Positions 12,187 to 37,401 of a stretch of DNA of 49,304 nt are shown here, one piece after another. The position numbers were made by a program, and so were the translations under genes. Origin of the DNA: a virus; the IMG/VR virus record IMGVR_UViG_3300032215_000120, positions 1 through 49,304 of that record. One strand, 5' to 3'. The notes beneath the pieces were generated by a model. That model saw only the letters and a list, made by a program, of their open reading frames with translations. It did no database searches and had not been told where the DNA came from. Within the stretch, counting starts at the first letter, position 1. Every line of letters starts with the position of its first letter.

Positions 12187-13068
12187 GTGATTATCACCAA
12201 CAAGTTTAATTTGCCTCAGACCTTCGTGAACATCATGAAGCGTCCTACCTACTCTAAAGGCAGAGCACATCTCTCTGCCACAGAGATCATTAATAGCCCG
12301 CGCATTGTGCTCCTACGCAAGAAGTACGAAGACAAGATTGAATCAGATGTAACAGAAATGGTCTGGTCTATCTTTGGAACAGCGATCCACGGCGTCCTCG
12401 AGCACGGCAAAGACGAGAACCACCTAGTCGAGGAGCGCATCAGCACAACCTTGGATGGTTGGAACATCTCAGGCGCCATCGACCTACAGATCGTCAACGA
12501 AGACGGCTCTATCACCATCAACGACTACAAGACTTGCGCCGCTTGGTCTGTGATGAATGAGAAGATTGACTGGGAATACCAGCTCAACATTTATGCATGG
12601 CTGGTTGAGAAGGTTAAGCAGACGCCAGTAACGAAGCTCGAGATCGTGGCCGTAATACGCGATTGGAGCCGCCGTGATGCCGCGGTCAAGCAGAACTACC
12701 CAGACGCCCCAATCAAGGTCATACCGATCAATCTATGGCCTTTTGAGCAACGTGAGAAGTTCATCCAAGACAGGATCACAGAACACTCTAACGCCCTGTT
12801 TGAATCAGAGACTGGTGAGGAGCTGCCACCCTGTACTCCAGAGCAGATGTGGGAGAAGCCAACCAGTTACGCCGTCAAGAAGATTGGCGGGCTAAAGGCT
12901 AGGAACATTTGCCAAACCAAGGAAGAGGCAAGCGCCAAGCTGGCTGAGTACGGCAAAGACTATGAGATGGAAGTACGCCCAGGGGAGAGAACCCGCTGCG
13001 CTAACTTCTGTTCTGTTCGCCCGTTTTGCTCACAGTGGGAAGAGTATGTTCAACAACAGCGCACCTGA
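12187..13068 (+). CDS. PD-(D/E)XK nuclease of the RecB/Cas4-like type
   Basis: 293 residues from a GTG with CGGAG upstream. Motifs: FGTAIHGVLE (His 68), SGAIDLQIV (Asp 99), INDYKTC (Asp 113, Lys 115) and YQLNIYAWL (Gln 132). The C-terminus holds CANFCSVRPFC which, with an upstream Cys, could bind an iron-sulfur cluster as in AddB/Cas4 nucleases. It would resect DNA ends to make 3' overhangs for the ERF annealing protein encoded 2 kb downstream. First gene of the rightward recombination operon. Confidence 0.8.
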   Translation: MIITNKFNLPQTFVNIMKRPTYSKGRAHLSATEIINSPRIVLLRKKYEDKIESDVTEMVWSIFGTAIHGVLEHGKDENHLVEERISTTLDGWNISGAIDLQIVNEDGSITINDYKTCAAWSVMNEKIDWEYQLNIYAWLVEKVKQTPVTKLEIVAVIRDWSRRDAAVKQNYPDAPIKVIPINLWPFEQREKFIQDRITEHSNALFESETGEELPPCTPEQMWEKPTSYAVKKIGGLKARNICQTKEEASAKLAEYGKDYEMEVRPGERTRCANFCSVRPFCSQWEEYVQQQRT

Positions 13069-13578: not shown

Positions 13579-13790
13579 TGCAAATACGTCCACAGCGACC
13601 CGACTACTCTATAAAGTTCACCAACCCCGATGGCGAGATCATTGGGACGTTGGACTTCAATGGATGGGTAATGACGTTTGATGGCGCAGCTGAGGAGAGC
13701 GCTATTAGATTTTTTCACTATGTCTCGCAGATGTTTTCCCAGCGTCTGGACGAGGAATATCAACGCGGTCTAACAGAAGGAAAGAAATGA
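13578..13790 (+). CDS. Small hypothetical protein
   Basis: 70 residues. A beta-rich N-terminal part (SIKFTNPDGEIIGTLDFNGWVMTFDG) is described here in general only: two strands and a turn. A helix with FHYVSQMFSQRLDEEY follows. It is joined to both neighbours by overlapping codons. Such proteins recur beside ERF-type recombinases in phages. Function unknown. Confidence 0.6.
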   Translation: MQIRPQRPDYSIKFTNPDGEIIGTLDFNGWVMTFDGAAEESAIRFFHYVSQMFSQRLDEEYQRGLTEGKK

Positions 13791-14497
13791 CAGTACACAA
13801 GAAGCTTATGGCGGCGCGAGTAGCGCTCCAAGGCATTGAGTTAAGGAAGTCGGGACAAAACAAGTTTGCCGGCTACAGTTACTTTGAGCTGGGTGATTTC
13901 CTGCCACACATCCAAAAGATATTTAACAACATCGGTTTGTGCGGCGTGGTTTCATACAACACAGAGTATGCAACCCTATGCATCACCGATGTAGAAGACG
14001 GCACAGTCATCGTGATTACTAGCCCCATGGCAGAGGCTAACCTCAAAGGCACCCACCCCATTCAGAACCTGGGCGCTGTTGAGACTTACCAAAGAAGGTA
14101 TCTCTGGATGACCGCCATGGAGATTGTTGAGCACGACATACTGGACGCAAGCGAGCCCATGAGAGAGGCGCCCAAGAAGATTGAGCCAAAGCCTGAGCCA
14201 GAACCTGAGCCTGAGAAACCCAAACTTAAGCAAAAGCCTTTACCCATACCGCCACCATTTAAGAACGATATGGTTCAGTGGCAGATCAAAGTTACAGAGA
14301 GCACAGAAGATAACTGGATTGACATTGTTATGGACGCGGCCAAGGTTTGCCTTGAGCTAACTAAGTCAGTCGATGATGTTAAGAACATTTATCAGGTCAA
14401 CCGAACTCTATTTGACAAGCTCAAAAACGAGTACCCAGACCAGCACGATGAGTTGCTGGAATTATTTAAAAAAGAAAAACAGTCTTTTAAGGAGTAA
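13787..14497 (+). CDS. erf: ERF-family single-strand annealing protein
   Basis: 236 residues. The N-terminal 130 match the ERF superfamily: KLMAARVALQG, FAGYSYFELGDFLPHI, TSPMAEANLKG, then LGAVETYQRRYLWMTAMEI. A Lys/Pro/Glu-rich linker (about 138-158) leads to a helical C-terminal part of about 80 residues. ERF proteins anneal complementary single strands during recombination-dependent replication. The nuclease at 12187 and the possible single-strand-binding protein next door support this. ATGA overlap upstream. Confidence 0.85.
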   Translation: MTVHKKLMAARVALQGIELRKSGQNKFAGYSYFELGDFLPHIQKIFNNIGLCGVVSYNTEYATLCITDVEDGTVIVITSPMAEANLKGTHPIQNLGAVETYQRRYLWMTAMEIVEHDILDASEPMREAPKKIEPKPEPEPEPEKPKLKQKPLPIPPPFKNDMVQWQIKVTESTEDNWIDIVMDAAKVCLELTKSVDDVKNIYQVNRTLFDKLKNEYPDQHDELLELFKKEKQSFKE

Positions 14498-16009: not shown

Positions 16010-16274
16010 TGCTGCCCGCCAACTACCCTGCCAACACTGTGGAACAAGTGACGGCACGGTGGTAGCGGCGCACTCCAACCAACTACGAGATGGCAAAGGC
16101 CGTGGCTTAAAGGCTCACGACTACCGTATTGCCTCGCTATGCTACAGGTGCCACTCTGACCTAGACCAAGGATCTAAGATGTCTAAACAGGAGAGGGTAG
16201 ATATGTGGGAAGAGGCCCACCGCAAAACGATAGGCCTCTTCTTTGAGAACAATATTATTGTTGTAGGCGTTTAA
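15984..16274 (+). CDS. DUF1364/HNH-like zinc protein
   Basis: 96 residues. It has CQHCGTSDGTVVAAHSNQ, a GLKAHDYRIASLCYRCHSDL segment and a helical end. This is the pattern of DUF1364, small lambdoid-phage proteins with a treble-clef/HNH-like fold (CxxC, H, CxxCH) near recombination genes. A nuclease or DNA-repair role is usual for the fold. It is the last gene of the rightward operon and overlaps the convergent polyvalent-protein gene by 20 bases. Confidence 0.65.
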   Translation: MYRNKKLTDAARQLPCQHCGTSDGTVVAAHSNQLRDGKGRGLKAHDYRIASLCYRCHSDLDQGSKMSKQERVDMWEEAHRKTIGLFFENNIIVVGV

Positions 16275-19200
16275 TCTGATCGTTCAAACCCTGCATGAGT
16301 CTGGTCTTCTGCTCATCAATTTTCTTGATGCGTTCTTCAGGAGCATCCTTCTCTTGCAGGAGTTTCTTCTGTTTATTTAGCTGGGTAATTTGGTTCTCAA
16401 GATAGTTAGCGCGGTTAATGAAGCGCACCTCTGGATGCTCGGCACGGTACTCGCGGGTATCTTCCTTGTTCTTCATGCGCTGCTTAATCTCATTCTCATG
16501 TTGAGCCAGCTCTGTTACGTTTGCATAGAACTTGGCAGAGATAGCGGCAGGCGTTGTTGTCTCGCCGTATAACTTACCTGCGATTGGCACTCTATACGAT
16601 GGCAACTCAGAAGTTTCACCCTTTGCCGCGGCACCTAAGTACTCGCCAGTCTTCATAACCTCACGGCCTACACCACCAGTGTATTGACCAATCAAGTAGT
16701 CAAGCTGGTCAGCAGTTGGGCTGATCTTGCCCTTTGTGTACGATGTCCCAGCAGGCGAAGAAACGTAGTTCAAAAACTCCGCGAGGTTCTTACTAAACCA
16801 GCTAGCACCTTCACGGCTACGCATGAAGCCTGGAGTTGGGGAGGTAGCGCGGTCTTCTTTGGAGATAGGTCTGCCAAACGCATCCTTGTTAGATTGGATG
16901 GCGGCCAATGGATCAAACGCTGTGGGCGACAGGATTTGTAACAAGCTACCAGAGCCTAATGGGTTGAACGAATCCAACACCAACGACGTTACATCCAGAA
17001 CTTTATCACCCAAACCCTTGGCACCAGTAATAGCGCCAGCTTGACCCAAGATGTACTCGGTAGTTAAGCGGCCGATACCAGGGAAGATGTTAAAGCCCAT
17101 AGGCATTGGGATAACAAGGTAGTCACCCCCGCCCATAGGCAAGATTAGGTTCTTGTCTTTGAGGAACTGTGGTGGCTCATCATCGTCAAAGCCCGCCATA
17201 GACAGGGCAATAGCCTGTATAACACCCAAGGTAAATCCGCCAGCCATGATCTTGCGACCAGCTGGTCCTTGCAAGGTTTCAGCCAAACGCTTTGTGCCTT
17301 GTACGGACGCATTAAAGAACGCATAGAGGGCTTGCAAAGTAGGAGATGCTGCACCCTTGCGGTTAAAGTTAACTGTCAGATTCTTAGCAAGGCTGGCGGC
17401 TTTGTCTTCGTTTAGACCTTGGTCTAGGGCAACCTTAAACGCAGACAGACGCACGGCATTTTCCATGGCGTCGTTGTAGTCTGATAGCCAGTTAAACACA
17501 GCATCAGCCGTCTTACGAACATTGCTTCTGTCTAGTTTTTCCAGCTCTCGAGCAACGATGCCGGCCTTGTCATTACCTCTACTGAATTGTTCCTTGTAGC
17601 CAGTAGTACCGCCTGCTTTTTGGAAGCGCTCAAACAACTCTTGCCATTCACCTTTTGGCTCTTTGCCAGCACGCTGAGCACGCAGGTCAGAATAAATACT
17701 TCTTAGGGCTGGGAAGACGCCCTTCAGTACTTCTTTCTCATGTCCAGCAATATCAGTGGTAGTCAGGTTGAGGGCAGCACCTTGGACGTCGCGTGCAAAG
17801 TTCCATGCACCGAACACTGGGTTGTACTGGGTATTGACAGACGCCATGAAGCGCGTGACTTCACCAATCGTTCCCATGGCTAGACCCATTTGCTCGGCAT
17901 CTAGGTTCTTCAGAGACTCCACCATGCGCTTGGCGCGAGGATCACTGCTGTTAAAGATGATGAAGCGATCTTCGCCATTGATACGGATTGGGAATACGTT
18001 GTCGCTGTTTCTCAGTAGAGGATTAACAACGTACTTCACCATGCCAGTCTTCTTATCGAAGGAGGCTGTAACAGGTTCTTTAGCAATGTTCTCTGCGTCG
18101 TCTGGGTTAAGGCCTAAGTCCTCAAGCTCAGCAGCTAACTTGTCTTTGTTCTTGATTGCATCAGGATTAATTGGCAACCAGAATTTAGTGTTTGGATTCT
18201 GAATAGCCAGCCCGTATAGCGCACGGCCAACTCGAGCCTTTTCAGACTTCATGATGGCCTGCTCGCGCTGGAGTGCAATGTTCTCAAATATGTCAACTAC
18301 GCTCTTCAAAGAACCCGTTGCACGCTTAGAGAATCCACCGCGGCTACCTAAGCCAGCACCAACACCGCCACCTTTAGTAACGTACTCCAACTCATCTCGC
18401 TTGAGCGGAACATAAAACGGGAATGCTTTGCGCCATGCTTGGATGGTTTCTTTCTTCTCAATACCGGTCTGCACCAGCATGTCCTGGGTGCCTCGAACGA
18501 TAGAGTCAATCTGTTTGGCTAGCTTCTCAAACACAGCCTTGCGGTCTGCGGGCAGATCTTCCAAATACTTCTTTGCAGCCTCTGTGGAAATGCCTGAGCC
18601 CTTGTTTTGGAGCTTGGGGTTTGGATTGATCTTGTTGATGTGTTCGTTGTACTCTTCGGCGTGGCGGTTGTGCAGGTACTGATCAAGGTCATCAATAGTG
18701 ACGTTAGCGTCCTTCATGTCCTTGGTGATTGGCAGCAGTTCTTTCTGCAAGAAGTCTTTGATGCCCTTGGCAGTGCGGCCGTGGTACAGCTCTTCCTTGA
18801 TATAGGCGTTGAACTTGTCAGAGATCTCGCCAACAGCTTTCTTGATGTTTTCAATGACGCGCTTGGTGTCAATCTGCTTATCAACAATCTTGTATTGGAA
18901 GTCATCAAGTTTGCTGTCTTGCAGGTTATCCCACTCAGCAGGCGCCATCTCGTCGCCCTTGAAGTTTCGATAGTCTGTGGGTGGTGCGCCTTCTACAGTT
19001 CCCTTGGCAAACAAGGGCAGCTGATCTTCTGCCACCAAAGTTGTTGTTGGAGTGAAGTCAACATTGCTTGTCACCGTATCTAAGTACTGGGCAAAGGTTT
19101 CGTTAGGCAAGAACTTAGCAGCCTTGGCTTGTGCAAAGAACTTCTTGATGGCAGCGCCTAGCTTGGCAAAGAACTTCTCGACTACGCTAACAGGCTTCTC

Positions 19201-22200
19201 GCTTGTCGTAGCCCAGCGGGATACTTGGTCTGCATACCACTCACTAAAGCTAAACCAGTATTGCTGGTTGGCCATCTTGTTTGCAGGAATGTTTAACTCT
19301 CCCTGCGTAGCGCGGCCTGTGCGCTTGGCGCGCATAGACTCAACCAACTCCTTGGCTGTACCGCCTCGAGCGGTCTTAAACCATGCATTGAACTCTTTGA
19401 TCAAAGCATTCTTAGTCTCAACGCTGGCGTTTTCGTAGGTTTGCTTTTGATGGATATGGCCAAACTCATGGGCAATAACTTCCAGCATCTTGCCGGCGCT
19501 TGTGCTCTTACGAACAATGACGATGTAGTCGTTAGGGCCAACCTTCTTAACTGTTCCAGGCTCATTTAAGAAACCCATGTAGCCAATTGCACGGTGTGGG
19601 CCGGTGAACTTATCCTTGTTGGCTAACGCTTCTTCAGCGGTCATGATGTGGATGTTGCCATCCAGCTTAAAGATCTTTGCCCAGTTTTTAGCAACAGCAG
19701 AGACTCTGCCGGATATACCAGTGGAACTTGTTACACCTGGCTCGATAGTCAGGAAAGGTTTCTTGGCGTGTTGCTCGGCAGCCTTGGCTTCAAACTCTTG
19801 CTTGACCTTAACCAGCTCACGATACTCGGAATCCTTCAGGCCAAATGACTTGGCTGGGAACTGCTCAATGTCATTTCGATACATCGTATCTTTGACGTAT
19901 GGAACATAGATTGGTTCACCAGTGCTAGCGCCATGCGCGCGAACCAAGCCAAGGTCACCATTGCTATAGACAATATCTCCGTTGTAATGTTTGGCTAAGT
20001 CTTCTATGTTTCCAATGGCGCCGGATATCTTGTTAATTTCTTCTGGCGCCCGCTCCATAACTTTAGTGCTTGGGCCGTTGTAATAAACCGGAAAATCAAA
20101 GCCAAACTTTTTATACAGGGCAACAAGCTCGTCAAAATTAAGTCCAGCTTGATTTGTTTTCTTGTCTCTCAAAGGCGTTGGCTCGGCGAATAAAACCAAA
20201 CCGTTTTTATCTGCAATATCTACCAAATCTTTTAATGCCCGGCTGGCTTTTCCTTGGCCGCGAGCTTCAGGATCAACCAAGATAACTTCAATAGTTAAAT
20301 CCTCATTATTGCCTCTCCCCAGCTGCACGCGATCCTTGTGTTCAAACAATACTTGCTGGGGGCTTAATGCCAAACGCACGCCATCTTTTTCAAATGTGCG
20401 ATGTTGGTTGCCGCCCTTGTCTGTGTAGGTACGCGGGTCGTTAAGGGCCAATACTTTATAGCCTGTATTAACAAGACCATACGCAGCTGGATAAGTTAAG
20501 GTATTGCCGTCAGGCGTATTTACTTCGTAGGACGGCTCTTCAGCCGGCTCTTTAGCTTTTGGTTTTTGTTTGGCAGGCTTCTCTTCTTCCGCAGCAAAGA
20601 TATCCTTCTGGCCGCGGGCAGCAGCCTCATCAGCAGGGCGGTTGCTACCAGTCAACACAAACTCACCACGCTCAGCGTCAGCCTTAGCTTTAGCCTCTGC
20701 CTCCTTCTCTAAGCGTGCGTTCTCTTTTTCTAAGCGGTCTATCTCTGCTTGCTTAGTTTTTAACTCTTCTGTTGTTTGCTGCTTGAGTTCAAGCTCCGCA
20801 GGTGCCTTGCTTTCCGCAGGGACTGGAGCCTTTTCTGTGGGGACAGCCTCACCAGTTTTTGCAGTAGTTCTTCTCTCTTCATCTTGTATCTCCTGTTCGC
20901 TGAAGCCTAAAGCCTCCATTGCCGCACGCGCAGACATTGTGCTGGCGGGCGTATCCATTAGCTCGTTGATGGCATCATCAAGGGCTTTGAAATCTTCGTT
21001 GTTAGTAGCGGCAAGCTCTTGAGACATTTGATCCATGTACTCTTGCTCAGACATGCCATACCACTCAGCATCAGTCTGGCCAGCGCGCTCTTCGTAGTCT
21101 TCTCCCTCTTGGGCTGCGCGCTCTGCATACTTGGCGGCCATGTCTTCTTGGGCTTGCTCAGAATAAACTGGCTCAACTTTCTTACCAGAGATGGCTAGCT
21201 CAATTAAATTAACCAGATCAGATTCAGTTGCGTCTTGTGGCAGGTACCCGTCTTGAATGGCGTATACGACTAGATCATCAGGCAACATGCCGGACTTTTT
21301 AAAGATGGGTCCATAGCCGCTAACTAAAATTTGTTTGCCAGCATTGAACTCAATCATTTGGCTCTTAGGTTTACCCTTCTCATGGTAAAGACCTTTGCTC
21401 GCCAAGAAAGTACGGAATGGATTCTTGTTGTATGCCGCTATGCGTAAAGGGCTGGCTTTTTCTAGGGCCGTCTTTGGTTTGGCTTTTTCAACATTTGGTT
21501 TCTTTGAAAGTTCTTCTAGTTCTTTATTTGCTACAGCAATGTTTTTCTTATAACTGTTAGTGCTATTTTTTGTGTTCTCTGTAAAAGTTTCAAACTGAGA
21601 GTCATTTAAATATCCAATAGAGTGTTGGTACTGAGCTTCATTTAAAGCCACTTCATCATAAGCAATGTTAAGTTCGTTATGTTTAATTGAAGCCTCATAA
21701 AGCTTTCTTAAGTTTTCGTCAGTTTTATTTTTTTGATAGTTTGCATGTATTTTGTTGTATTCTTCAACTGCTTTGTCAAATTTTTTGTAAGCCTCTGTAG
21801 TGGCTTTATTAAGCTTGGTTCTGGTGGCAGCATTAGTGACTGGAGCAACGGGCGCAACCCCTGGCTCAACGCCTAGAAACTTGTATGTATTTGCAACATC
21901 CGCCTTTGATTCTTCTATAGCCTTGGCTAACTTTTCTGGATTGGCAAGCTTTTTGTTATTGCCAACGCGCTCGCTTTCCATAAGAAGACGAGATCCGCCA
22001 CCAGTAAGTGTGCTGAATTGATCAAACAAAGGACGCACATCTGCTGGAACTTGGTGCTTGACAGCATTAGCAGAGTAACCCTTGGCGTTAATAGCGTCCG
22101 TAACTTTTTGGATGGCCTGATTTAGTTCTCCAATAACTTGCTTGACTTCAGGCTGGCCGTATTTCTTAAGCTCATCTAGACGCTTCTTGTCTTCTTTGTA

Positions 22201-23757
22201 ATTAGCAAAGAATGTGTCTAAGGATTTGGTTTCTTTGTAGTCGCCTTTAGGAGCTACTGCTGGCGTAAAGTTTTGATTTGGCTTTACAAATTGCGCGGCT
22301 TTTGCTTTGATAAGATCGTATTGCCTCTGCAAATCATCGTACTGCGCTTGTGTAATCTGCCCGTCTGACAGCATACGTGTCGCATTAAACATGGACACAT
22401 TCGCGCGGCGCAGACGCTCTTGCGGATCAAGTTCTTCTTTAGGAGCCTCTGCAGCCGTTACTTCAGGTGGAACATGTTCCACTTCTGGCGTTTTGGCTGG
22501 GGCAATTGGGGCAACCTCTGGGGCAACTGGGGCATTGCCCTCTATCGTGGCAAGCTGATCTTCCAGCTCTCTTAGCATTGCTTCGCGGTCTTGCGCTGGA
22601 GCGTTGACGTCTTCAACTGGAACAGTGGCTGGTGTTAATAAGGTTGGTTGGACGGCTGGCGCTTCCTCAACTGGCTTGGCTACAGGAGCCTGGGCTGTTT
22701 GTGCAGTTTGTGCAATTTGTTCAGCCACTTGTTTGTCAAGTTCTTCTTGGCGTTTTTGCTGCATCCTGCCGGTTAAATGTCCAGCGCCACCACCGCCAAC
22801 ACCCATGGCAAAGCCAGTAACGGCACCCATACCAGCGGCTTCAGCAACGCCCTGCATGAGTGGTTTATCTGTGGCGTAGTTTGCCCACATTTGTTCTTGA
22901 GCTGATTGAGGCATCTCCTCAAACACGCCTTCCGAGATACCAGAACCAATAGCGCGCTTGGCAAAGTCACCAACAGATTTAGATGCACCCTTAGATGCTC
23001 CGCCCGCTAACAAAGTGTCAATGTCATCAAATCCAAGTTTGTTGGCCAGCCGACCACCAGCCACACCAAATGCAGCCGTACCAACACCACTACCTAAAGC
23101 GGCCAAAGATTGGGCTGCCGTCAGTAGCTTGTCTTTAGTTTCGCCGCGGGTTTGCTCAGCAGCAGAGCCGGCACCCAAGATACCTTCGCCAAGACCACCA
23201 GCTACCGCAGCTCCTACGCTAGGCGCCGCTTTTAATATGCCTCGAGCTATGCCAGCTCCGCCAATCATTTGAGGCAAGGACTCACCTACGCCAGTAAGGA
23301 TGGTGCTGGGGTTTTGTAAAGCAGTCGCAATTGTGGGACCAAACCCTTGGGCTTCTTGTACCTTGCGATTGGCGGCTTGCTGTGCTTCAGATAGATATGT
23401 GTCTAGGATTTGCTTAGCTTCGCGTGGACGGAATCCCGCCTCTTCAAGGACTTTACCAACCGCTCCACCAGTTGGTATATCTGCTAAACCAACAAACGAC
23501 TCAGGCAGGCCAATAGCCCCCTTGAGTAAGGTAATGCCAGCATCTAAAGCAGCATCAGATATAGAACGGCTTGGAGATTCTTGATTACGCTTCTCTAGTG
23601 CCGCCCTATATTGATTGGCATCCATGACATTGGGCGCATTTGCAGAAGATGGACTTGGTTGTGATGCTGAGTACGATGCATAAGACCATGCGGTTTTAGG
23701 ATCTGGCGCGTCAACCTCATAGGTTTTACCCCCAAAATCAACTTCGTATGTAGGCAT
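16255..23757 (-). CDS. 2500-residue polyvalent virion protein (LPD38-type)
   Basis: A giant protein, probably injected or internal to the virion. Residues 1-330 contain Gly/Ala-rich hydrophobic segments that may act on membranes. Low-complexity Ala/Pro/Glu linkers follow. Near 764-857 lies an NPFRTFLASKG-type module. A GNAT-like domain is at about 1070-1215 (VDPEARGQGKASRAL near 1160). A zinc-metallopeptidase motif IAHEFGH stands near 1430. The C-terminal part (about 1600-2290) matches the large polyvalent-protein domain LPD38 (RKAFPFYVPL, NFARDVQGAA) and ends in a coiled coil. Polyvalent proteins carry several enzymes into the host at infection. Domain limits are estimates. Confidence 0.75.
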   Translation of the reverse strand: MPTYEVDFGGKTYEVDAPDPKTAWSYASYSASQPSPSSANAPNVMDANQYRAALEKRNQESPSRSISDAALDAGITLLKGAIGLPESFVGLADIPTGGAVGKVLEEAGFRPREAKQILDTYLSEAQQAANRKVQEAQGFGPTIATALQNPSTILTGVGESLPQMIGGAGIARGILKAAPSVGAAVAGGLGEGILGAGSAAEQTRGETKDKLLTAAQSLAALGSGVGTAAFGVAGGRLANKLGFDDIDTLLAGGASKGASKSVGDFAKRAIGSGISEGVFEEMPQSAQEQMWANYATDKPLMQGVAEAAGMGAVTGFAMGVGGGGAGHLTGRMQQKRQEELDKQVAEQIAQTAQTAQAPVAKPVEEAPAVQPTLLTPATVPVEDVNAPAQDREAMLRELEDQLATIEGNAPVAPEVAPIAPAKTPEVEHVPPEVTAAEAPKEELDPQERLRRANVSMFNATRMLSDGQITQAQYDDLQRQYDLIKAKAAQFVKPNQNFTPAVAPKGDYKETKSLDTFFANYKEDKKRLDELKKYGQPEVKQVIGELNQAIQKVTDAINAKGYSANAVKHQVPADVRPLFDQFSTLTGGGSRLLMESERVGNNKKLANPEKLAKAIEESKADVANTYKFLGVEPGVAPVAPVTNAATRTKLNKATTEAYKKFDKAVEEYNKIHANYQKNKTDENLRKLYEASIKHNELNIAYDEVALNEAQYQHSIGYLNDSQFETFTENTKNSTNSYKKNIAVANKELEELSKKPNVEKAKPKTALEKASPLRIAAYNKNPFRTFLASKGLYHEKGKPKSQMIEFNAGKQILVSGYGPIFKKSGMLPDDLVVYAIQDGYLPQDATESDLVNLIELAISGKKVEPVYSEQAQEDMAAKYAERAAQEGEDYEERAGQTDAEWYGMSEQEYMDQMSQELAATNNEDFKALDDAINELMDTPASTMSARAAMEALGFSEQEIQDEERRTTAKTGEAVPTEKAPVPAESKAPAELELKQQTTEELKTKQAEIDRLEKENARLEKEAEAKAKADAERGEFVLTGSNRPADEAAARGQKDIFAAEEEKPAKQKPKAKEPAEEPSYEVNTPDGNTLTYPAAYGLVNTGYKVLALNDPRTYTDKGGNQHRTFEKDGVRLALSPQQVLFEHKDRVQLGRGNNEDLTIEVILVDPEARGQGKASRALKDLVDIADKNGLVLFAEPTPLRDKKTNQAGLNFDELVALYKKFGFDFPVYYNGPSTKVMERAPEEINKISGAIGNIEDLAKHYNGDIVYSNGDLGLVRAHGASTGEPIYVPYVKDTMYRNDIEQFPAKSFGLKDSEYRELVKVKQEFEAKAAEQHAKKPFLTIEPGVTSSTGISGRVSAVAKNWAKIFKLDGNIHIMTAEEALANKDKFTGPHRAIGYMGFLNEPGTVKKVGPNDYIVIVRKSTSAGKMLEVIAHEFGHIHQKQTYENASVETKNALIKEFNAWFKTARGGTAKELVESMRAKRTGRATQGELNIPANKMANQQYWFSFSEWYADQVSRWATTSEKPVSVVEKFFAKLGAAIKKFFAQAKAAKFLPNETFAQYLDTVTSNVDFTPTTTLVAEDQLPLFAKGTVEGAPPTDYRNFKGDEMAPAEWDNLQDSKLDDFQYKIVDKQIDTKRVIENIKKAVGEISDKFNAYIKEELYHGRTAKGIKDFLQKELLPITKDMKDANVTIDDLDQYLHNRHAEEYNEHINKINPNPKLQNKGSGISTEAAKKYLEDLPADRKAVFEKLAKQIDSIVRGTQDMLVQTGIEKKETIQAWRKAFPFYVPLKRDELEYVTKGGGVGAGLGSRGGFSKRATGSLKSVVDIFENIALQREQAIMKSEKARVGRALYGLAIQNPNTKFWLPINPDAIKNKDKLAAELEDLGLNPDDAENIAKEPVTASFDKKTGMVKYVVNPLLRNSDNVFPIRINGEDRFIIFNSSDPRAKRMVESLKNLDAEQMGLAMGTIGEVTRFMASVNTQYNPVFGAWNFARDVQGAALNLTTTDIAGHEKEVLKGVFPALRSIYSDLRAQRAGKEPKGEWQELFERFQKAGGTTGYKEQFSRGNDKAGIVARELEKLDRSNVRKTADAVFNWLSDYNDAMENAVRLSAFKVALDQGLNEDKAASLAKNLTVNFNRKGAASPTLQALYAFFNASVQGTKRLAETLQGPAGRKIMAGGFTLGVIQAIALSMAGFDDDEPPQFLKDKNLILPMGGGDYLVIPMPMGFNIFPGIGRLTTEYILGQAGAITGAKGLGDKVLDVTSLVLDSFNPLGSGSLLQILSPTAFDPLAAIQSNKDAFGRPISKEDRATSPTPGFMRSREGASWFSKNLAEFLNYVSSPAGTSYTKGKISPTADQLDYLIGQYTGGVGREVMKTGEYLGAAAKGETSELPSYRVPIAGKLYGETTTPAAISAKFYANVTELAQHENEIKQRMKNKEDTREYRAEHPEVRFINRANYLENQITQLNKQKKLLQEKDAPEERIKKIDEQKTRLMQGLNDQIKRLQQ

Positions 23758-25689: not shown

Positions 25690-26652
25690 TTATTTGGGAG
25701 GAGTTGTTGTGCCAGTTGTAAGGCCAAGCGCTTTTAACAACTCACTAATATCGTTATAACCAAATGCTTTGGCCGCCGCAACACCGCCACCTAAACCTTG
25801 CAAAATAGAACCAATTCCAGACAGTTGGCCGGGCGTATTAGTTACTGATGAAACAGGCAATCCAGAGATCATGTCGCGCTGAAATTGAATCTGCTGGTAT
25901 GGGTACTGACGTTGCTTTTCAAACTCAGCCAAATCTGCTGCTGTGCCGGCTTGATTGATGCCTTGCTGTACTCCGCCTTGCTGAGCAAGCATGTTGACCA
26001 AATCTTTAGACTGGCCTTGCTCAGCATTGAACTGTTGCATAGCCTTGTCGTAGGCATTGGCGTAACCTGTGCCTACAGTCTTATTCATCTCTTGCATCAA
26101 GTTACGGTTGTTTTCCGAGTTCATGATGGCTTGACGGCTACCACCAAAAGCACCTGCGCCAGTAAGCTTGGCGTTAGTGTTCATGTTGGTAATGTCGTTT
26201 TGACGGCGTAACTCTGCCAGCTGTGGATCAAGCACAGACTGTAGGTATGGGTTCATGTACTGGCTAGCCGCGCCGGGCGTACCAGAGCTTGTAAATGGAG
26301 CGCCCGCTCCACCAGAAGTTCCATTAGACAAACCACCCGTACCAATTGGCTGTACACCACCCGGCATACTTGTGTTTGGGGCCTGATATGCGCCCGTAGA
26401 ACTAAAGCTCTGACCAAGATTGCTTGGTACAGATAGGTTAGCAAGCCCGCCAAAGACATTACTTTGTAACGCTGAAGGACCAGCAGTAAGTGGTCCGCCA
26501 TACGTTTGATATGGTTGAGCCGCTTGCGCCTGAGCTTGGCCCAAGTAGTTTGTAATGTACGGAGCAGCCCAGTCGGCTAAGCCCTGTGTATTTGTGCCAC
26601 CCGTGCCTATGTTGGTGGCTAAGCCTGCGGTAGTTGATGGATCAGCGGCCAT
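25690..26652 (-). CDS. Probable virion protein, Gly/Gln/Ala-rich
   Basis: 320 residues, rich in Gly, Gln, Asn and Thr. The middle segment (ARLRRQND-like, then NTNAKLTGAGAFGGSRQAI and a Gln-rich helix) resembles short internal or tail proteins that form a bundle. Hydrophobic Gly-rich stretch near the C-terminus (GLGGGVAAAKAFGY). It lies between two other unknown virion genes with short gaps. No family recognised. Confidence 0.6.
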   Translation of the reverse strand: MAADPSTTAGLATNIGTGGTNTQGLADWAAPYITNYLGQAQAQAAQPYQTYGGPLTAGPSALQSNVFGGLANLSVPSNLGQSFSSTGAYQAPNTSMPGGVQPIGTGGLSNGTSGGAGAPFTSSGTPGAASQYMNPYLQSVLDPQLAELRRQNDITNMNTNAKLTGAGAFGGSRQAIMNSENNRNLMQEMNKTVGTGYANAYDKAMQQFNAEQGQSKDLVNMLAQQGGVQQGINQAGTAADLAEFEKQRQYPYQQIQFQRDMISGLPVSSVTNTPGQLSGIGSILQGLGGGVAAAKAFGYNDISELLKALGLTTGTTTPPK

Positions 26653-26661
26653 GTCAGTTCC

Positions 26662-28056
26662 TTATGCGGGTAAGTATTTAGCGGCCTTTGTATCGGCTGC
26701 CACATTTTTTGTTTTACGGCGTGCTTTTTGCACTCGGTCCATCATTTCGTACAAGCGCTTAGCGCCTGCGTCTGTAGAGCCATTACCTAGCTCTGAAACA
26801 ATACGGGCTGGTACAACAAACTCACCATCAGCAAGGCGGGCTGGTTGTTTGCCTCCGATTGTCGCAGGAATATTGTCAGACACACCATCGCCAGGGCCTC
26901 TGAGTAAACGGCCACCATCTGAGTACCCGCCCAATGTAGAGATGCCGCCACCAGCGTAGCCAATCATGCCTCCGTTGGCTTTAGGCGTGTAGGTTGTGGG
27001 TGAAAAGTATGTCTGGCCACCAGCCCCAGGACGGGAGGGTGCCGTATAAGGCAGCATTCTTTGGTTGGCTTGCAACTGAGGAATGGAGGCTTGCGTGCCA
27101 GAGCTACCACCGCTCTTACCCATTTGAGACATGAGATACATAAGTAGCATCATCATCATAGGGTCCATGCCAGATTTGGTTGTTGGTGTAAGAGTTTTTA
27201 CTCCGCCGCCAGTTTTTGTATTGTCAATAGTTGTTTTGGTATCAATAACTTTGCCAGTCGTACCGTCTTTAATAATTGTTGTAGTTAATCCATCTTTGCC
27301 AACTGATGTAGTGGTAATCTGATCTGTTTTTGGGTTATAGGTTGATGTTCCATTTGTTGTTACTTGCGTTTTGCCAGTGACTTTAGGGTTATTAATCAAA
27401 CTATCGCCACCCAAAGCAACTTGCGAATTATCAGGAACAAAACCAGATTGAGTTAATGTGCCGCCGGTTCCTTTGATTTGTGTGCCATCTGAACCGTATT
27501 GGGCTGGAATATAAGACGTTAAACCTTGGCCGCCATTAAGATAATCCATATTGGCACCTTGCGATGCAATTGACGACATATCTCCAAGACCGGTGCCTGT
27601 AGTTTGATCTATGCCTGCTGGAGTTGAATAATCCACCTTTCCGCTGTTTAAATAATTATTAACATTTAAACCAAGTTTATTGTCGCTTGGCATTTGAGTT
27701 AAAGATTTAAGATCAACTGCGTTATCTTTACTGGAAGACAAAGATTTAAGAAAGTCTTCAAGGCTTGCGGTATCACTTCCACCGCTAAGGTCAACACCAG
27801 ATAATGAACGCGTTGCACCACCAGTATCACCACCGACAAGATCACTCAACCCAAGTTGGGCAAGTAAATCTTTATCCATGCCCATGTTAGATGTTGGGCC
27901 TAAGTCGGTGCTTATATTACTAAGATCAGCCAAGAGGCTGCTTAAATCAAAATTTCCAGCACTACCGCCCCCAAGGTCAATCCCGTCAAAGTTGCTTAGG
28001 TCAAAATTCCCGGCGCTACCACCGCTTAAGTCAATGCCGTCAAATTCATCTGCCAT
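26662..28056 (-). CDS. Virion protein with N-terminal duplicated module and tape-measure-like C-terminus
   Basis: 464 residues. The start has a 19-residue unit twice (FDGIDLSGGSAGNFDLS and FDGIDLGGGSAGNFDLS). Low-complexity Gly/Ser/Thr/Asp sequence follows, with a Thr-rich beta region near 230-285. The C-terminal 110 residues include GGMIGYAGGGI, then LRGPGDGVSDNIPA and RLADGEFVVPA, a motif found near the end of many tail tape-measure proteins, and a basic helix. No long coiled coil is present, so it is not a classical tape measure. Confidence 0.6.
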   Translation of the reverse strand: MADEFDGIDLSGGSAGNFDLSNFDGIDLGGGSAGNFDLSSLLADLSNISTDLGPTSNMGMDKDLLAQLGLSDLVGGDTGGATRSLSGVDLSGGSDTASLEDFLKSLSSSKDNAVDLKSLTQMPSDNKLGLNVNNYLNSGKVDYSTPAGIDQTTGTGLGDMSSIASQGANMDYLNGGQGLTSYIPAQYGSDGTQIKGTGGTLTQSGFVPDNSQVALGGDSLINNPKVTGKTQVTTNGTSTYNPKTDQITTTSVGKDGLTTTIIKDGTTGKVIDTKTTIDNTKTGGGVKTLTPTTKSGMDPMMMMLLMYLMSQMGKSGGSSGTQASIPQLQANQRMLPYTAPSRPGAGGQTYFSPTTYTPKANGGMIGYAGGGISTLGGYSDGGRLLRGPGDGVSDNIPATIGGKQPARLADGEFVVPARIVSELGNGSTDAGAKRLYEMMDRVQKARRKTKNVAADTKAAKYLPA

Positions 28057-30626: not shown

Positions 30627-30974
30627 TTAACCTACTTTCCAATTTGTACCGTCAGAATAGACGGGCACCTTAACAGCGCCTCCGCCCACGACAGTAGCAC
30701 CAAATGTTGGCGCAAGTGCATCCGTTACAAAAGATCTTGTGCCAGCGCCGGATGTTGACGCGCTTGGCAATGTTGCCACCGTGTAGTTAGTTAAATTAGG
30801 AATGTCTGACGATGCCGTCAATTGTCCTACCAAGCTATCCAGACGGTTGAAGTACAAGCGCAAGACGTTGTTTAGCTGGTCTTGATACTGCGGGTTGTAC
30901 TCAGGCGTGGCCAGTGGAAGACTAGGCGCAGCAATTTTGTTGAGTTCAAAATCGGTGGTAACAATATAGGTCAT
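30627..30974 (-). CDS. Small virion protein
   Basis: 115 residues. The middle has YQDQLNNVLRLYFNRLDSLVGQL, a helix of the trimerising type (quoted only as a general pattern), and the C-terminal half is a beta-rich Gly/Thr segment ending VPVYSDGTNWKVG. Such short proteins are common between tail genes in phages of this kind. It overlaps the preceding gene by 4 bases. Function not known. Confidence 0.6.
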   Translation of the reverse strand: MTYIVTTDFELNKIAAPSLPLATPEYNPQYQDQLNNVLRLYFNRLDSLVGQLTASSDIPNLTNYTVATLPSASTSGAGTRSFVTDALAPTFGATVVGGGAVKVPVYSDGTNWKVG

Positions 30975-33055
30975 CGTCTGCCGTCCGCTTTAATGTCCAT
31001 ACGTGTAGCACCTAACTGCCACGTAGTACCAATCTTGTTAGAACCTATCTTCAGAATCAACTGACGCCCGCGAACGCGGGTATTAACCTGACCAGTAAAG
31101 CCTTCAGTAATCGTATATTGAGCGCCTGTTAACTGAGATACACCAGCTGCAACAGGAGTTCCCGTGCCAGAGCCTGAGTTCTGCATTGGGTAAATGGTCA
31201 TCGTTACTTGACCTGTTGAACCAGAAGTAGTTCCTGAGAACGTCAAGTCAGGCAGCATACGCCAGATAAAACCAAACTTATCACCATCGTCAATGTCAAA
31301 CTCAGATGATGAGATGTAGGCGTCGATTGCCCTAATTGTGCTGGTTTCGTTGTCGTCTACACCATACTCTTGGTTCATCAGGTTGTAGTTGTAACCGGCA
31401 GACAGTGGGTAATCTCTTAGTCCAGAATCAATCCATGCTGTTCGTGCCATCGTGCCGTAGTACCAGCATTTCTCTTGGTAGTTATACACAACATAACGGT
31501 TAATTGATGTGTTTCCAGCAGAACAATAGAACCACCAGACTTCGTTAAAGCCTTCGTTGGTGCTGGAGAAGACCTGTTGGGATTGGCCAAGGTTTATGTC
31601 TTGATAGATAAATTTACGCAGATCGCAGTTCAATGTAGCAACGCGGCCATCGTACATATAGAACTTATCCACACCCATCCAGTACACCACGCCAGAAGCC
31701 TGAGATACAGCGTTAGGGCTAATGATGGAGATGTTGTCGCCAAGTAACTGAGTTCCCCAAACTGTGGGTGGTCCAAGGTATTGGAGCGAATACACGGCAG
31801 AGTCAGACCAAACCACAATCTCTTGACGGGTCTGGATAGATGTAATTAACTGTGATCCATGCGACAAGCGGATACTGCCCGCTTGATTTGTAGCCGATGG
31901 AGTCCACTGCGTCACTGACTCCTGATCAGACCAGCGAATAAGCATTGGGTCTTGGATTGAGCTGCCAAGATCGTTACAGCCAAAAGCAAATGTAAAGCGG
32001 CTGATGTCAGACACATATACAAAGTTTTGGATGATTGGCACATCTGACGCGCCGTATAGCGATGTCACTGGCACGGCATTTGGCAAAATGTAATGAAGCC
32101 CAGACTGAGTACCTGACGTATTGATAGCCACACCGCCCGGGGTAAGCGACAAGTTAAATGATGTGCCTGATACGCCCTTGACGTAATAAATAGTGCCAAC
32201 AGTCAGCCCAGAAGGTAGAGCCGATGGGTATCCTGTATTGACCAGAATGACTGGAGCATTTTCCATCAGCAATAGAGCTGAGGTAACTACGGCTGGAGTA
32301 GCAATAGTGATGGTTGCCGCGGTTGGAGTGACGCCAAAATTAGCATCCCAATAATAGATAGGACTACCGCGAAACCCTAGAACTAGGTTTTGTCCAAAGT
32401 TAGTCTGGCTCCATAGACGCAAGGAGGAGCTAGATGTGCCTCCATTACCCCATGTTCCAGTACCCCAGGCTCCAGCACCCCAGCCAGTTAGCGGGATTTC
32501 ATACTCAAAGCCTACATTGATTTGGTATACGGCACTAACTGTCGTTCCGCCACCAGTAGCACCTGATGAAGCCGCCGTAGCAGATTGGATTGTGTAAGCG
32601 TTGGCGCTTGTTACAGTGACTGAATACTCGCCGTTTAAATTAAGCCCGCCTACAGTGGCTGCATTGCTATATGTGACGTAATCCCCAGTAACGCATCCAT
32701 GTGCTGTATGGGCAACAGTAACTGTCTTGCTTGTGTTAATTGTTGTAAAAGGATTACTTAGAATCGCTGCCGTGCGGATAGGCGTGATGTCGTTATATGC
32801 CCCACCGTTCTCAATGTAGAACTTTAGGTTAGTACCTACACCTAAAAGATTTAGGTTGGCTAAAGTAACCCAGTTCCACAAAGACCGGCAAATACCAGCA
32901 AAGGTGTTAGAAGAAATCTGTGCCCAGCCACCAATTACTTCAGGCGTGCCTTGACGAAACCGAACCTTGTCGGATTCATACCAGCCCCCTTCATTGGTAT
33001 ACCGCGTGTTCTCGCGGTTAACACCAACTTTGGGTAGAAATTTCTTTAAAGGCAT
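30971..33055 (-). CDS. Probable tail or packaged-DNA-stabilisation protein
   Basis: 694 residues, beta-rich. The N-terminus (LPKVGVNRENTRYTNEGGWYESDKVRF in general pattern) with RFRQGTPEVIGGW recalls P22-like stabilisation and tail-tube proteins of podoviruses. The central section has repeated Gly/Thr/Trp strands (TVSAVYQINVGFEYEIPL), and the C-terminal section binds like a beta propeller (IRWSDQESVTQWTP; VVWSDSAVYSLQYLGPP). It is followed by the lysis genes on the same strand. Exact place in the tail cannot be fixed here. Confidence 0.6.
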   Translation of the reverse strand: MPLKKFLPKVGVNRENTRYTNEGGWYESDKVRFRQGTPEVIGGWAQISSNTFAGICRSLWNWVTLANLNLLGVGTNLKFYIENGGAYNDITPIRTAAILSNPFTTINTSKTVTVAHTAHGCVTGDYVTYSNAATVGGLNLNGEYSVTVTSANAYTIQSATAASSGATGGGTTVSAVYQINVGFEYEIPLTGWGAGAWGTGTWGNGGTSSSSLRLWSQTNFGQNLVLGFRGSPIYYWDANFGVTPTAATITIATPAVVTSALLLMENAPVILVNTGYPSALPSGLTVGTIYYVKGVSGTSFNLSLTPGGVAINTSGTQSGLHYILPNAVPVTSLYGASDVPIIQNFVYVSDISRFTFAFGCNDLGSSIQDPMLIRWSDQESVTQWTPSATNQAGSIRLSHGSQLITSIQTRQEIVVWSDSAVYSLQYLGPPTVWGTQLLGDNISIISPNAVSQASGVVYWMGVDKFYMYDGRVATLNCDLRKFIYQDINLGQSQQVFSSTNEGFNEVWWFYCSAGNTSINRYVVYNYQEKCWYYGTMARTAWIDSGLRDYPLSAGYNYNLMNQEYGVDDNETSTIRAIDAYISSSEFDIDDGDKFGFIWRMLPDLTFSGTTSGSTGQVTMTIYPMQNSGSGTGTPVAAGVSQLTGAQYTITEGFTGQVNTRVRGRQLILKIGSNKIGTTWQLGATRMDIKADGRR

Positions 33056-36231: not shown

Positions 36232-37401
36232 TTATGTTCGTGCAATACCAATGGCAGAAACATACTGGCCAGAAACGCTCAACCACGTAGTTAAAGAGCC
36301 TACTTGCTTAGGAGAAGAGTAGCTAGTAGTGTTTCCTAGACCAAGCCTTCCATTTGCGTTGTTACCCCAAACCCACAGTGTTCCGTCAGTTTTAAGTGCG
36401 TAACAAGATCCATATCCGTGTTGTACGGTTGACCAATTTGTTAATGCACCAATTTGAACAGGGCTAGATATAACGCTACTTGCAGAATTATTTCCAACCA
36501 CTCCTTCTACGCCGTTATATCCCCATCCCCATAAAGTTCCATTTGCTTTTATTGAGTGTGCTGTTTGTAAACCAGCGCATGTAATATTTATCCAATTTGT
36601 TAAAGCGCCAATTTGAACTGGAGATGAATAATTTGTTGTATTTCCTGTGGCAAGATTGCCGTATCCGTTATAGCCCCAACCCCAGAGTGTACCGTCTGTT
36701 TTAACTGCAAAAGTCTGACTTCCGCCCGTGGCAACATATGACCAAGTGGTTAAAGCTCCAACTTGTACGGGGGATGAAATGTAGTTACCACTGCTACCAA
36801 TTCCAATATTACCCCAATAGTTTGGCCCCCATCCCCATAAAGTACCATCTGTTTTTGTGGCCATCGTAGCGTATGAATCGCAAACAACTGTAGACCAATT
36901 AGTTAATGACCCAACTTGTACAGGGGAAGAATAACTTATTGCGTTGCCAAGTCCTAATTGGACATAGGTATTATCTCCCCACGCCCATAATGTACCGTCA
37001 GTTTTTATGGCAATGGTAAAACTAGTGCCAGCAGAAACTTTTGACCAGTTAGTTAATGCGCCAACTTGCTTTGGGCTAGAGTATTTAGTTCTATTACCAA
37101 GACCAAGTTGCCCCATACTATTTCCGCCCCAAGACCACATCGTTCCATCTGTTTTTATAACCATTGAACTTGATCCGCCAACACTATTGCTAACATAGCT
37201 CCATGTTGTTAAAGACCCAATTTGTTTGGGTGAGGAATAATCAGTAATATTACCAAGACCAAGTTGTCCAACATTATTAAACCCCCACGCATACAAATGC
37301 GGCGCTGGCTGGCTCGGCCAAGTCCCCAACGCCTGTGCATTGGCTACACTGCTAAGACTCCATGAGCCTGAGTATTGAACGCCTGAATATATGATTGGCA
37401 T
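36232..37401 (-). CDS. RCC1-type seven-bladed beta-propeller protein, type A, copy 1
   Basis: 389 residues. Seven repeats of about 50 residues, each with TLWxWGxN, a GNLGLGN-like turn, SSPVQVGxLTNW and a variable strand, as in RCC1 propellers. A short header of about 35 residues (MPIIYSGVQYSGSW...GTWP) precedes blade 1; the same header type begins the protein at 41486. It lies one base after the type B copy 1 gene. A receptor-binding or virion-surface role is inferred from location and phage context. Confidence 0.75.
   Translation of the reverse strand: MPIIYSGVQYSGSWSLSSVANAQALGTWPSQPAPHLYAWGFNNVGQLGLGNITDYSSPKQIGSLTTWSYVSNSVGGSSSMVIKTDGTMWSWGGNSMGQLGLGNRTKYSSPKQVGALTNWSKVSAGTSFTIAIKTDGTLWAWGDNTYVQLGLGNAISYSSPVQVGSLTNWSTVVCDSYATMATKTDGTLWGWGPNYWGNIGIGSSGNYISSPVQVGALTTWSYVATGGSQTFAVKTDGTLWGWGYNGYGNLATGNTTNYSSPVQIGALTNWINITCAGLQTAHSIKANGTLWGWGYNGVEGVVGNNSASSVISSPVQIGALTNWSTVQHGYGSCYALKTDGTLWVWGNNANGRLGLGNTTSYSSPKQVGSLTTWLSVSGQYVSAIGIART

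What the first reader, a model, noticed from the sequence alone, without database searches (positions are those of the whole stretch)
16255..23757. 2500-residue polyvalent protein with acetyltransferase- and metallopeptidase-like modules
About 15 percent of the window encodes one protein combining hydrophobic segments, a GNAT-like domain (VDPEARGQGKASRAL), an IAHEFGH zinc-peptidase motif and an LPD38 domain. Such proteins are thought to enter the host with the DNA. The GNAT and peptidase could modify or cut host defence or surface proteins early in infection.
Basis: partly seen in the sequence, partly recalled or inferred. Interest (0 to 1): 0.6.

Follow-up and report, generated by a model that had tools for sequence, protein, structure and literature searches.

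The report
Giant phage polyvalent cargo protein
This is a 2500-residue phage protein, probably packed in the virus particle and injected into the bacterium, that strings an acetyltransferase and a zinc peptidase onto a constant rear module; relatives keep the rear module while the enzymes in front of it change.

Summary
Confirmed: one intact 2500-aa ORF, on the MINUS strand (16255-23757), with a GNAT, an IAHEFGH zincin and LPD38. AlphaFold2 folds the GNAT and zincin cores confidently; the GNAT resembles RimI, TacT and the anti-CRISPR AcrVA5. HExxH and a distant Glu (predicted third ligand) are kept in 42 of 42 aligned relatives, so the peptidase is probably active.

It is homologous to Burkholderia phage JC1 gp69, found in purified virions by published proteomics. 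In the window's clade 51 of 57 relatives carry an HExxH/HExxxH motif just before this module, from several profile families that align weakly or not at all. The window and its sister L007 (82% identical module) differ in peptidase family. The GNAT is a sporadic cargo.

Best reading: an injected polyvalent protein; its ends deliver it, the junction peptidase works mainly in cis, the GNAT is a host-directed effector. The kind is known (2017); the fixed, exchangeable peptidase slot is the less expected part.

The parts
16255..23757 (-). ORF of the giant polyvalent protein, 2500 aa plus stop (P0001)
   Evidence: the whole record is the window
22438..23757 (-). residues 1-440: N-terminal region with hydrophobic, Gly/Ala-rich stretch
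   Evidence: phrog_30335 and phrog_11358 matches; hydrophobic stretch 217-235 and N-terminal enrichment in relatives; related in L007, L036, L037, L039, L005
20590..20655 (-). residues 1035-1056: boundary linker LTGSNRPADEAAARGQKDIFAA in front of the GNAT
   Evidence: same linker in 23 of 194 giants (25 copies; 2 of the 23 are duplicate contigs)
20038..20529 (-). residues 1077-1240: GNAT acetyltransferase module
   Evidence: Pfam Acetyltransf_1; AF2 and PDB matches
19078..20010 (-). residues 1250-1560: zincin metallopeptidase module
   Evidence: HEFGH and conserved Glu, alignment A6, AF2
19456..19470 (-). residues 1430-1434: HEFGH motif
   Evidence: 42 of 42 zincin rows keep H, E, G, H
19240..19242 (-). 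residue Glu1506 in FSEWYAD, predicted third zinc ligand
   Evidence: E in 42 of 42 rows, on the predicted helix 455-468 of the model
19000..19020 (-). residues 1580-1586: LPLFAKG boundary motif between zincin and C-terminal module
   Evidence: aligned with LFSRS in L011 and L013
16258..18966 (-). residues 1598-2500: constant C-terminal module
   Evidence: (34 loci); AF2 mean pLDDT 86.2, pTM 0.85
17185..17253 (-). residues 2169-2191: hydrophobic helix in the C-terminal module
16588..17181 (-). residues 2193-2390: LPD38 domain
   Evidence: Pfam PF18857
23758..25680 (-). upstream late gene, 640 aa, no family match; related genes upstream of the giant in relatives
25690..26652 (-). upstream late gene, 320 aa, related genes upstream of the giant in relatives
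26662..28056 (-). upstream late gene, 464 aa, related genes upstream of the giant in relatives
30971..33055 (-). virion structural protein (phrog_3287, head and packaging)
   Evidence: also upstream in relatives

Best explanation
A virion-packaged, injected polyvalent protein built in three zones. (1) Its N-terminal ~440 residues and its constant ~890-residue C-terminal module (with LPD38 and a hydrophobic helix) package it and take it across the envelope with the DNA. (2) The middle is cargo, which in this phage includes a GNAT that probably acetylates a host protein early in infection, perhaps part of a defence system. (3) Between cargo and C-terminal module sits a zincin that cuts mainly in cis, at or near the junction, to separate the soluble cargo from the delivery module, before packaging or after entry. 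Shown here: ORF, folds, conserved catalytic residues, homology to a known virion protein, late-operon position, fixed peptidase slot with changing peptidase families. Inferred: delivery of this protein, cleavage in cis and its site and timing, GNAT substrate.
For: Homologous C-terminal module in JC1 gp69 (residues 16-798 of 901, 26% identity, E 3e-52), a protein found with 51 unique peptides in CsCl-purified virions (PMC9144972, passages). Late-gene neighbourhood kept (in BcepIL02 and JC1 the gene before the giant is annotated as virion protein). Hydrophobic stretches concentrate at the ends in 122 complete giants: 3.24 per 1000 aa in the first 450 aa, 0.30 in the middle, 1.53 in the C-terminal module. 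Peptidase slot: 34 of 43 near relatives and named phages have HExxH 155-215 aa before the module and 6 more have HExxxH there; 51 of 57 rows in the window's clade; families differ, also between the window and its closest relative L007. A scan with this zincin family (query with only the first few residues of the module) found it only in giants: 56 of 56 unique complete ORFs of 1940 aa or more, HExxH 1026-1747 aa from the C-terminus, median 1079. GNAT fold: AcrVA5 Z 10.6, rmsd 2.3, 95 aligned; RimI Z 9.0.
Against: No cleavage product or cleavage site is known. Outside the window's clade only 9 of 62 rows have a zincin motif at the junction; many have an ADP-ribosyltransferase or other module there, so a junction peptidase is not needed for the C-terminal module to work. 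F/Y-S-R/K motifs at boundaries do not go with a zincin (Fisher p 0.50) and are rarer where a zincin sits at the junction (6 of 41, against 32 of 87 for the other classes together). Peptidase families that keep changing also fit an arms race with host targets or inhibitors. The virion evidence is from a distant homologue.
Confidence: 0.45

Rival explanations
1. One reading: both GNAT and peptidase are effectors that modify or cut host defence or other host proteins early in infection; the peptidase does not act in cis.
For: Catalytic residues conserved; peptidase families change between close relatives as in an arms race; Iyer et al. 2017 list this as a possibility (PMC5512222 passages); the GNAT is close in fold to AcrVA5.
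Against: The zincin keeps one place, next to the C-terminal module, whereas cargo such as the GNAT moves (profile match starts from residue 972 to 1640 in proteins of 2476 to 3554 aa, with an ART between GNAT and zincin in L007 and L039 but not in the window or L038). This zincin family was never found alone. Nothing links either domain to surface proteins.
Confidence: 0.27
2. The slot is a recombination effect: crossovers in the conserved edge of the C-terminal module bring in whatever module the donor had there, and zincins are merely common in this clade; the position has no functional meaning.
For: The start of the C-terminal module is a conserved stretch (RN-[YF]-x-G ... W-x-x-P-x-x-S-K); clear exchange between relatives (L022 and L038 share a 90% DNA-identical 926-base GNAT stretch while the module regions match at 64-67%); other modules fill the slot outside the clade.
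Against: Within the clade 51 of 57 rows have a zincin motif, of several families not clearly related, against 9 of 62 outside; a blind donor pool would bring in ART and others more often. Between window and L007 the replaced block has homologous sequence on both sides.
Confidence: 0.2
3. The domains are folded but catalytically dead leftovers or spacers in a structural ejection protein.
For: The GNAT scores just under Pfam's cut-off in the whole protein (19.4 against 20.7).
Against: HEFGH, Glu1506, Trp1507, Asp1510 in 42 of 42 rows (with the caveat that loci were found by peptides around one or the other motif); GNAT R1166 and G1169 in 13 of 13 rows; the GNAT stretch alone passes the cut-off (21.9).
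Confidence: 0.05

Closest known systems
Polyvalent proteins (Iyer et al. 2017, PMC5512222)
   Same: Several unrelated enzymatic domains and LPD38 in one phage polypeptide; zincin MPTase and GNAT are both on their list; autoproteolysis is already proposed there (passages).
   Different: Here the zincin lies in a fixed slot in front of a constant ~890-aa C-terminal module and belongs to one of several exchangeable families; the GNAT lies next to the zincin, not to an ART as in their first GNAT family (though L007 and L039 do have an ART).
DarB-like giant proteins of Lessievirus (JC1 gp69, BcepIL02 gp70, Bcep22)
   Same: Homologous C-terminal module, end of the late operon, and a zincin motif HEAFH 155 aa before the module in BcepIL02 and CSP3; found in the virion in JC1.
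   Different: JC1 gp69 carries lytic-transglycosylase, helicase and methylase-type matches (tables of PMC9144972; CSP3 annotation); the window protein has none of these in Pfam.
AcrVA5 and RimI-like GNATs
   Same: GNAT fold (VIA-align Z 10.6 and 9.0).
   Different: Only 19% and 20% identity; AcrVA5 is a stand-alone 96-residue chain; substrate cannot be read from the fold.
Phage P1 DdrB
   Same: Phage head protein with a zincin, reported as processed before packaging (as told in PMC5512222).
   Different: No sequence comparison made here; other domains.

Membership tests
Phage polyvalent protein (Iyer 2017) | two or more domains of disparate biochemical kinds in one polypeptide | tested here: met
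   GNAT, zincin, LPD38
Phage polyvalent protein (Iyer 2017) | encoded by a phage or mobile element among late or virion genes | tested here: met
   virus record; virion structural gene on the same strand and shared upstream genes
Phage polyvalent protein (Iyer 2017) | delivered into the host with the DNA | not testable with these tools
   only by homology: JC1 gp69 in virions
Pfam LPD38 (PF18857) | score above the curated cut-off | tested here: met
   129.3 bits against 27
GNAT acetyltransferase | Pfam score above the curated cut-off | tested here: inconclusive
   whole protein 19.4 against 20.7; the 591-aa segment alone 21.9
GNAT acetyltransferase | GNAT fold and motif A (R-x-x-G-x-[AG]) | tested here: met
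   AF2, PDB matches, R and G in 13 of 13 rows
Zincin metallopeptidase | HExxH helix plus a third zinc ligand on a following helix | tested here: met
   42 of 42 rows; both on predicted helices 372-390 and 455-468 of the model, preceded by strands. Distances between ligands were not measured, as no coordinates were at hand; the fold match of this part is untested
Named Pfam metallopeptidase family (M48, M78) | score above the curated cut-off | tested here: not met
   window: M48 14.1 against 20.3, M78 not listed; M78 seen in 9 of 52 rows of A6 at best E 0.0011
DarB-like Lessievirus giant | lytic transglycosylase, helicase and methylase modules | tested here: not met
   no such family among the 5 listed for P0001 at E up to 0.1
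DarB-like Lessievirus giant | homologous C-terminal module | tested here: met
   E 3e-52

The most novel reading that the evidence does not exclude
The LPD38-containing ~890-aa module is a general protein-delivery tail with a plug-in peptidase slot: unrelated zincins are exchanged at one place because the protein must cut itself, and a short linker motif (hydrophobic-F/Y-S/A-R/K: LFSR, RYSR, in the window DIFAA and PLFAKG) at module borders marks where modules are separated after injection.
Probability: 0.25. Interest if true: 0.65.

Novelty: new member of a known kind. Interest (0 to 1): 0.42.

Why it matters
If the junction peptidase releases cargo from a constant delivery module, phages have a natural cargo-injection chassis with defined borders, and the open question of how multi-domain injected proteins leave the head and then act separately becomes testable with one active-site mutant. 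The GNAT, close to AcrVA5 in fold, is a candidate early counter-defence enzyme.

Tried and rejected
Universal junction zincin: rejected. After it looked near universal (40 of 43), but the wider set showed HExxH or HExxxH within 320 aa of the module in 76 of 168 giants with a covered junction; it is a trait of the window's clade.

F/Y-S-R/K as cleavage site of the zincin: first counts in the near relatives were driven by conserved sites inside the C-terminal module. In 128 non-redundant junctions the motif stands in 38 of 128 of the last 60 aa before the module against 2-11% in each other 60-aa window from -600 to -60, FSR 20 observed against 1.02 expected, reversed RSF 0; in the cargo FSR 82 against 25.4, but part of this repeats within related sequences (for example the recurring MRDILAFSR and FSRDFANGAP contexts). 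In 13 of the 38 the preceding module was classed as ART, often with the shared tail PDIRFSR; without ART rows 25 of 97 against 3-8 of 95-97. No association with zincin presence. Kept as a lead, not as a claim.

A motif search on the junction found the start of the module itself first; it was not re-run on masked sequence.

Solved-structure searches: no relative of the C-terminal module by sequence below E 0.5 and no fold match at E 0.001 or better, best second-look Z 5.9; domains of it were not folded separately, so a known fold inside it is not excluded. The zincin by sequence: one chance-level match; its fold was not listed because the GNAT filled the list, so its fold match is untested. NCBIfam and PADLOC: nothing. 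The N-terminal family profile reached only 13 of 122 complete giants.

Literature: 'LPD38' is in 8 papers of the library, of which 2 are relevant phage papers by title (PMC5512222, PMC9144972; a third, PMC12779148 on Edwardsiella, was not opened). For the boundary motif, 'FSR' has 0 occurrences in the main text of PMC5512222 and a combined search gave no paper with 'FSR motif' and polyvalent proteins; this is not a full search. Of PMC5512222 and PMC9144972 only passages were seen; PMC8954989 only in a search listing.
Full report
OBSERVATION. The interval holds one ATG-started ORF of 2500 codons on the minus strand, 15.2% of the 49304-base virus record, which is the whole record. Pfam gives LPD38 at 2193-2390 (E 2.4e-37), Acetyltransf_1 at 1152-1195 (E 0.0013, 19.4 bits, just under the cut-off) and a weak M48 match at the HEFGH. 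PHROGs of unknown function match residues 1615-2496 (phrog_14770, E 8e-181) and 51-362 (phrog_30335). No NCBIfam or PADLOC model matches.

SURROUNDINGS. The giant closes a long minus-strand run of late genes: a virion structural protein (phrog_3287) at 30971-33055 and RCC1-repeat proteins further up. The genes just upstream have no family match, but relatives of them stand near the giant in other phages: of 193 loci searched, sequence related to the 640-, 320- and 464-aa proteins was found in 23, 42 and 34, and to the phrog_3287 protein in 11 (many loci do not reach so far, and duplicates are included). This is the kind of place where short-tailed phages encode ejection or internal virion proteins (general knowledge).

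RELATIVES AND ZONES. The last ~900 residues are shared with 34 virus contigs at 50-82% identity, with 80 loci in bacterial and archaeal genome records (best 80 of 148), with 80 further or repeated virus loci (best 80 of 450), and with 136 phage records. The middle differs almost freely and total length runs from 1992 to over 4200 aa. The module begins with a recognisable stretch (RN-[YF]-x-G ... W-x-x-P-x-x-S-K). AlphaFold2 gives it mean pLDDT 86.2, pTM 0.85, mostly helical. Foldseek finds it over nearly its whole length in many predicted virus proteins, down to 13-20% identity (TM-score to the query up to 0.95), several annotated as large polyvalent protein, but in no solved structure at E 0.001 or better. 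So Pfam's 189-position LPD38 is only a part of a module of ~890 residues. In 122 complete giants hydrophobic stretches lie at the two ends: 3.24 per 1000 aa in the first 450, 0.30 in the middle, 1.53 in the module, with at least one in 96% of the modules.

VIRION LINK. JC1 gp69 (4515 aa) matches residues 16-798 of the module at 26% identity, E 3e-52. Its authors found gp69 in CsCl-purified virions with 51 unique peptides and 15.6% coverage, second in their table (PMC9144972, passages). I infer that the window protein is a virion protein too; this was not tested.

GNAT. The AF2 model of residues 1050-1640 (mean pLDDT 79.5) has the GNAT core mostly at 80-97. The best PDB matches are GNATs: YhbS, RimI, AtaT by Foldseek; AcrVA5 Z 10.6, rmsd 2.3, 95 of 96 residues, then many at Z 8-9 including RimI and TacT by VIA-align. 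The leading R and G of motif A are kept in 13 of 13 rows. A scan for this GNAT family found 19 loci, of which 11 are giants with the module (L285 weakly) and 8 are weak matches to proteins of 113-514 aa. It is thus a sporadic cargo. L022 and L038 share a 926-base stretch over the GNAT at 90% DNA identity while their module regions match at only 64-67%: modules are exchanged.

ZINCIN. HEFGH (1430-1434), Glu1506, Trp1507 and Asp1510 are kept (H, E, G, H, E, W, D) in all 42 rows of A6 that cover them; the loci were found by a peptide around one or the other motif, so at each site part of the agreement is built in. In the model HEFGH and Glu1506 lie on two helices after strands, the order given for polyvalent zincins in PMC5512222. 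Of 81 ORFs with this zincin family, 65 are complete and 56 unique; all are giants of 1940 aa or more with HExxH 1026-1747 aa (median 1079) from the C-terminus. Forty-five of the 56 lack a direct match to the module profile, but a profile of the C-terminal parts of 25 of these matches it (hhalign probability 99.3%, E 1e-20, 461 columns). The zincin query contained only the first few residues of the module.

THE SLOT. Among 43 near relatives and named phages with a covered junction, 34 have HExxH 155-215 aa before the module and 6 have HExxxH at 142-181 aa; MetMV, Palmer and HTVC204P do not. In the wider set 76 of 168 have either motif within 320 aa; others have ART or other modules. On a tree of 119 modules (FastTree) junction class changes at least 39 times (shuffled mean 74); in the well supported set of 57 that holds the window 51 have a zincin motif, against 9 of the other 62 (classes by pattern). 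Profile comparison of the zincin types: B and C are one family (99.8%), while A (the window's), B/C, D and the HExxxH type give 0.2-54% to one another. Weak probabilities do not exclude remote kinship within the zincin fold. The window (type A) and L007 (type B) are sisters with full support and 82-83% module identity, with homologous sequence on both sides of the replaced block and an extra ART in L007. One place, several peptidase families.

MECHANISM. I take the slot as the strongest clue: a peptidase kept at the border between cargo and delivery module most simply acts there. Iyer et al. already proposed autoproteolysis by zincins of polyvalent proteins, with P1 DdrB as a processed example and N4 vRNAP as one packaged unprocessed (PMC5512222 passages). 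Against it: no cleavage data, and most relatives outside the clade lack a junction zincin. The GNAT is best seen as an injected effector acting on a protein; the substrate is open.

BOUNDARY MOTIF. Linkers just before the module carry [FY]S[RK] in 38 of 128 non-redundant junctions, against 2-11% in each other 60-aa window further upstream; the looser [ILMVPR][FY][SA] in 60 of 128 against 16-28 of 114-128 upstream. The window has LPLFAKG there, and DIFAA before the GNAT inside a linker (LTGS-x-R-x-AD ... GQ-x-x-[LIM]F) found in 23 of 194 giants, 2 of them duplicate contigs. Whether this is a cleavage site, a recombination seam or a docking motif is open; there is no association with zincin presence.

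VERDICT. The protein is a new member of a known kind.

Noticed in passing
36232-37401, 37403-38611, 40326-41486, 41493-42638 (minus strand): Four RCC1-repeat proteins among the late genes, split by ORF 38539-40311 (phrog_27463, unknown function), whose end overlaps the start of the longest ORF at 37403-38611.
   Followed up: no
L041 (MetMV, Methanosarcina virus), L070 (Methanoperedens MAG), L062 (Nitrosotalea MAG), L194: The C-terminal modules of these four form one fully supported group on the tree; three come from records named for archaea, MetMV and L070 nearly identical. Either archaeal tailed viruses use this delivery protein or the labels and bins are contaminated.
   Followed up: partly
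linkers before the C-terminal module and between modules in L049-L194; window residues 1054 and 1583: Recurrent short motif hydrophobic-[FY]-[SA]-[RK] at module borders.
   Followed up: partly
L022:6767-7690 and L038:7982-8905: A 926-base stretch over the GNAT is 90% identical while module regions match at 64-67%; 891 bases just after the giant are 96.9% identical. Recent mosaic exchange.
   Followed up: partly
L052:4118-8386 and L052:8849-12748: The giant appears as two ORFs on one strand, 1423 aa with the N-terminal family and 1300 aa with the C-terminal module: split gene, broken gene or assembly error.
   Followed up: no
12187-13068 and 13787-14497 (plus strand): PD-(D/E)XK nuclease and ERF recombination protein in the plus-strand region.
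   Followed up: no
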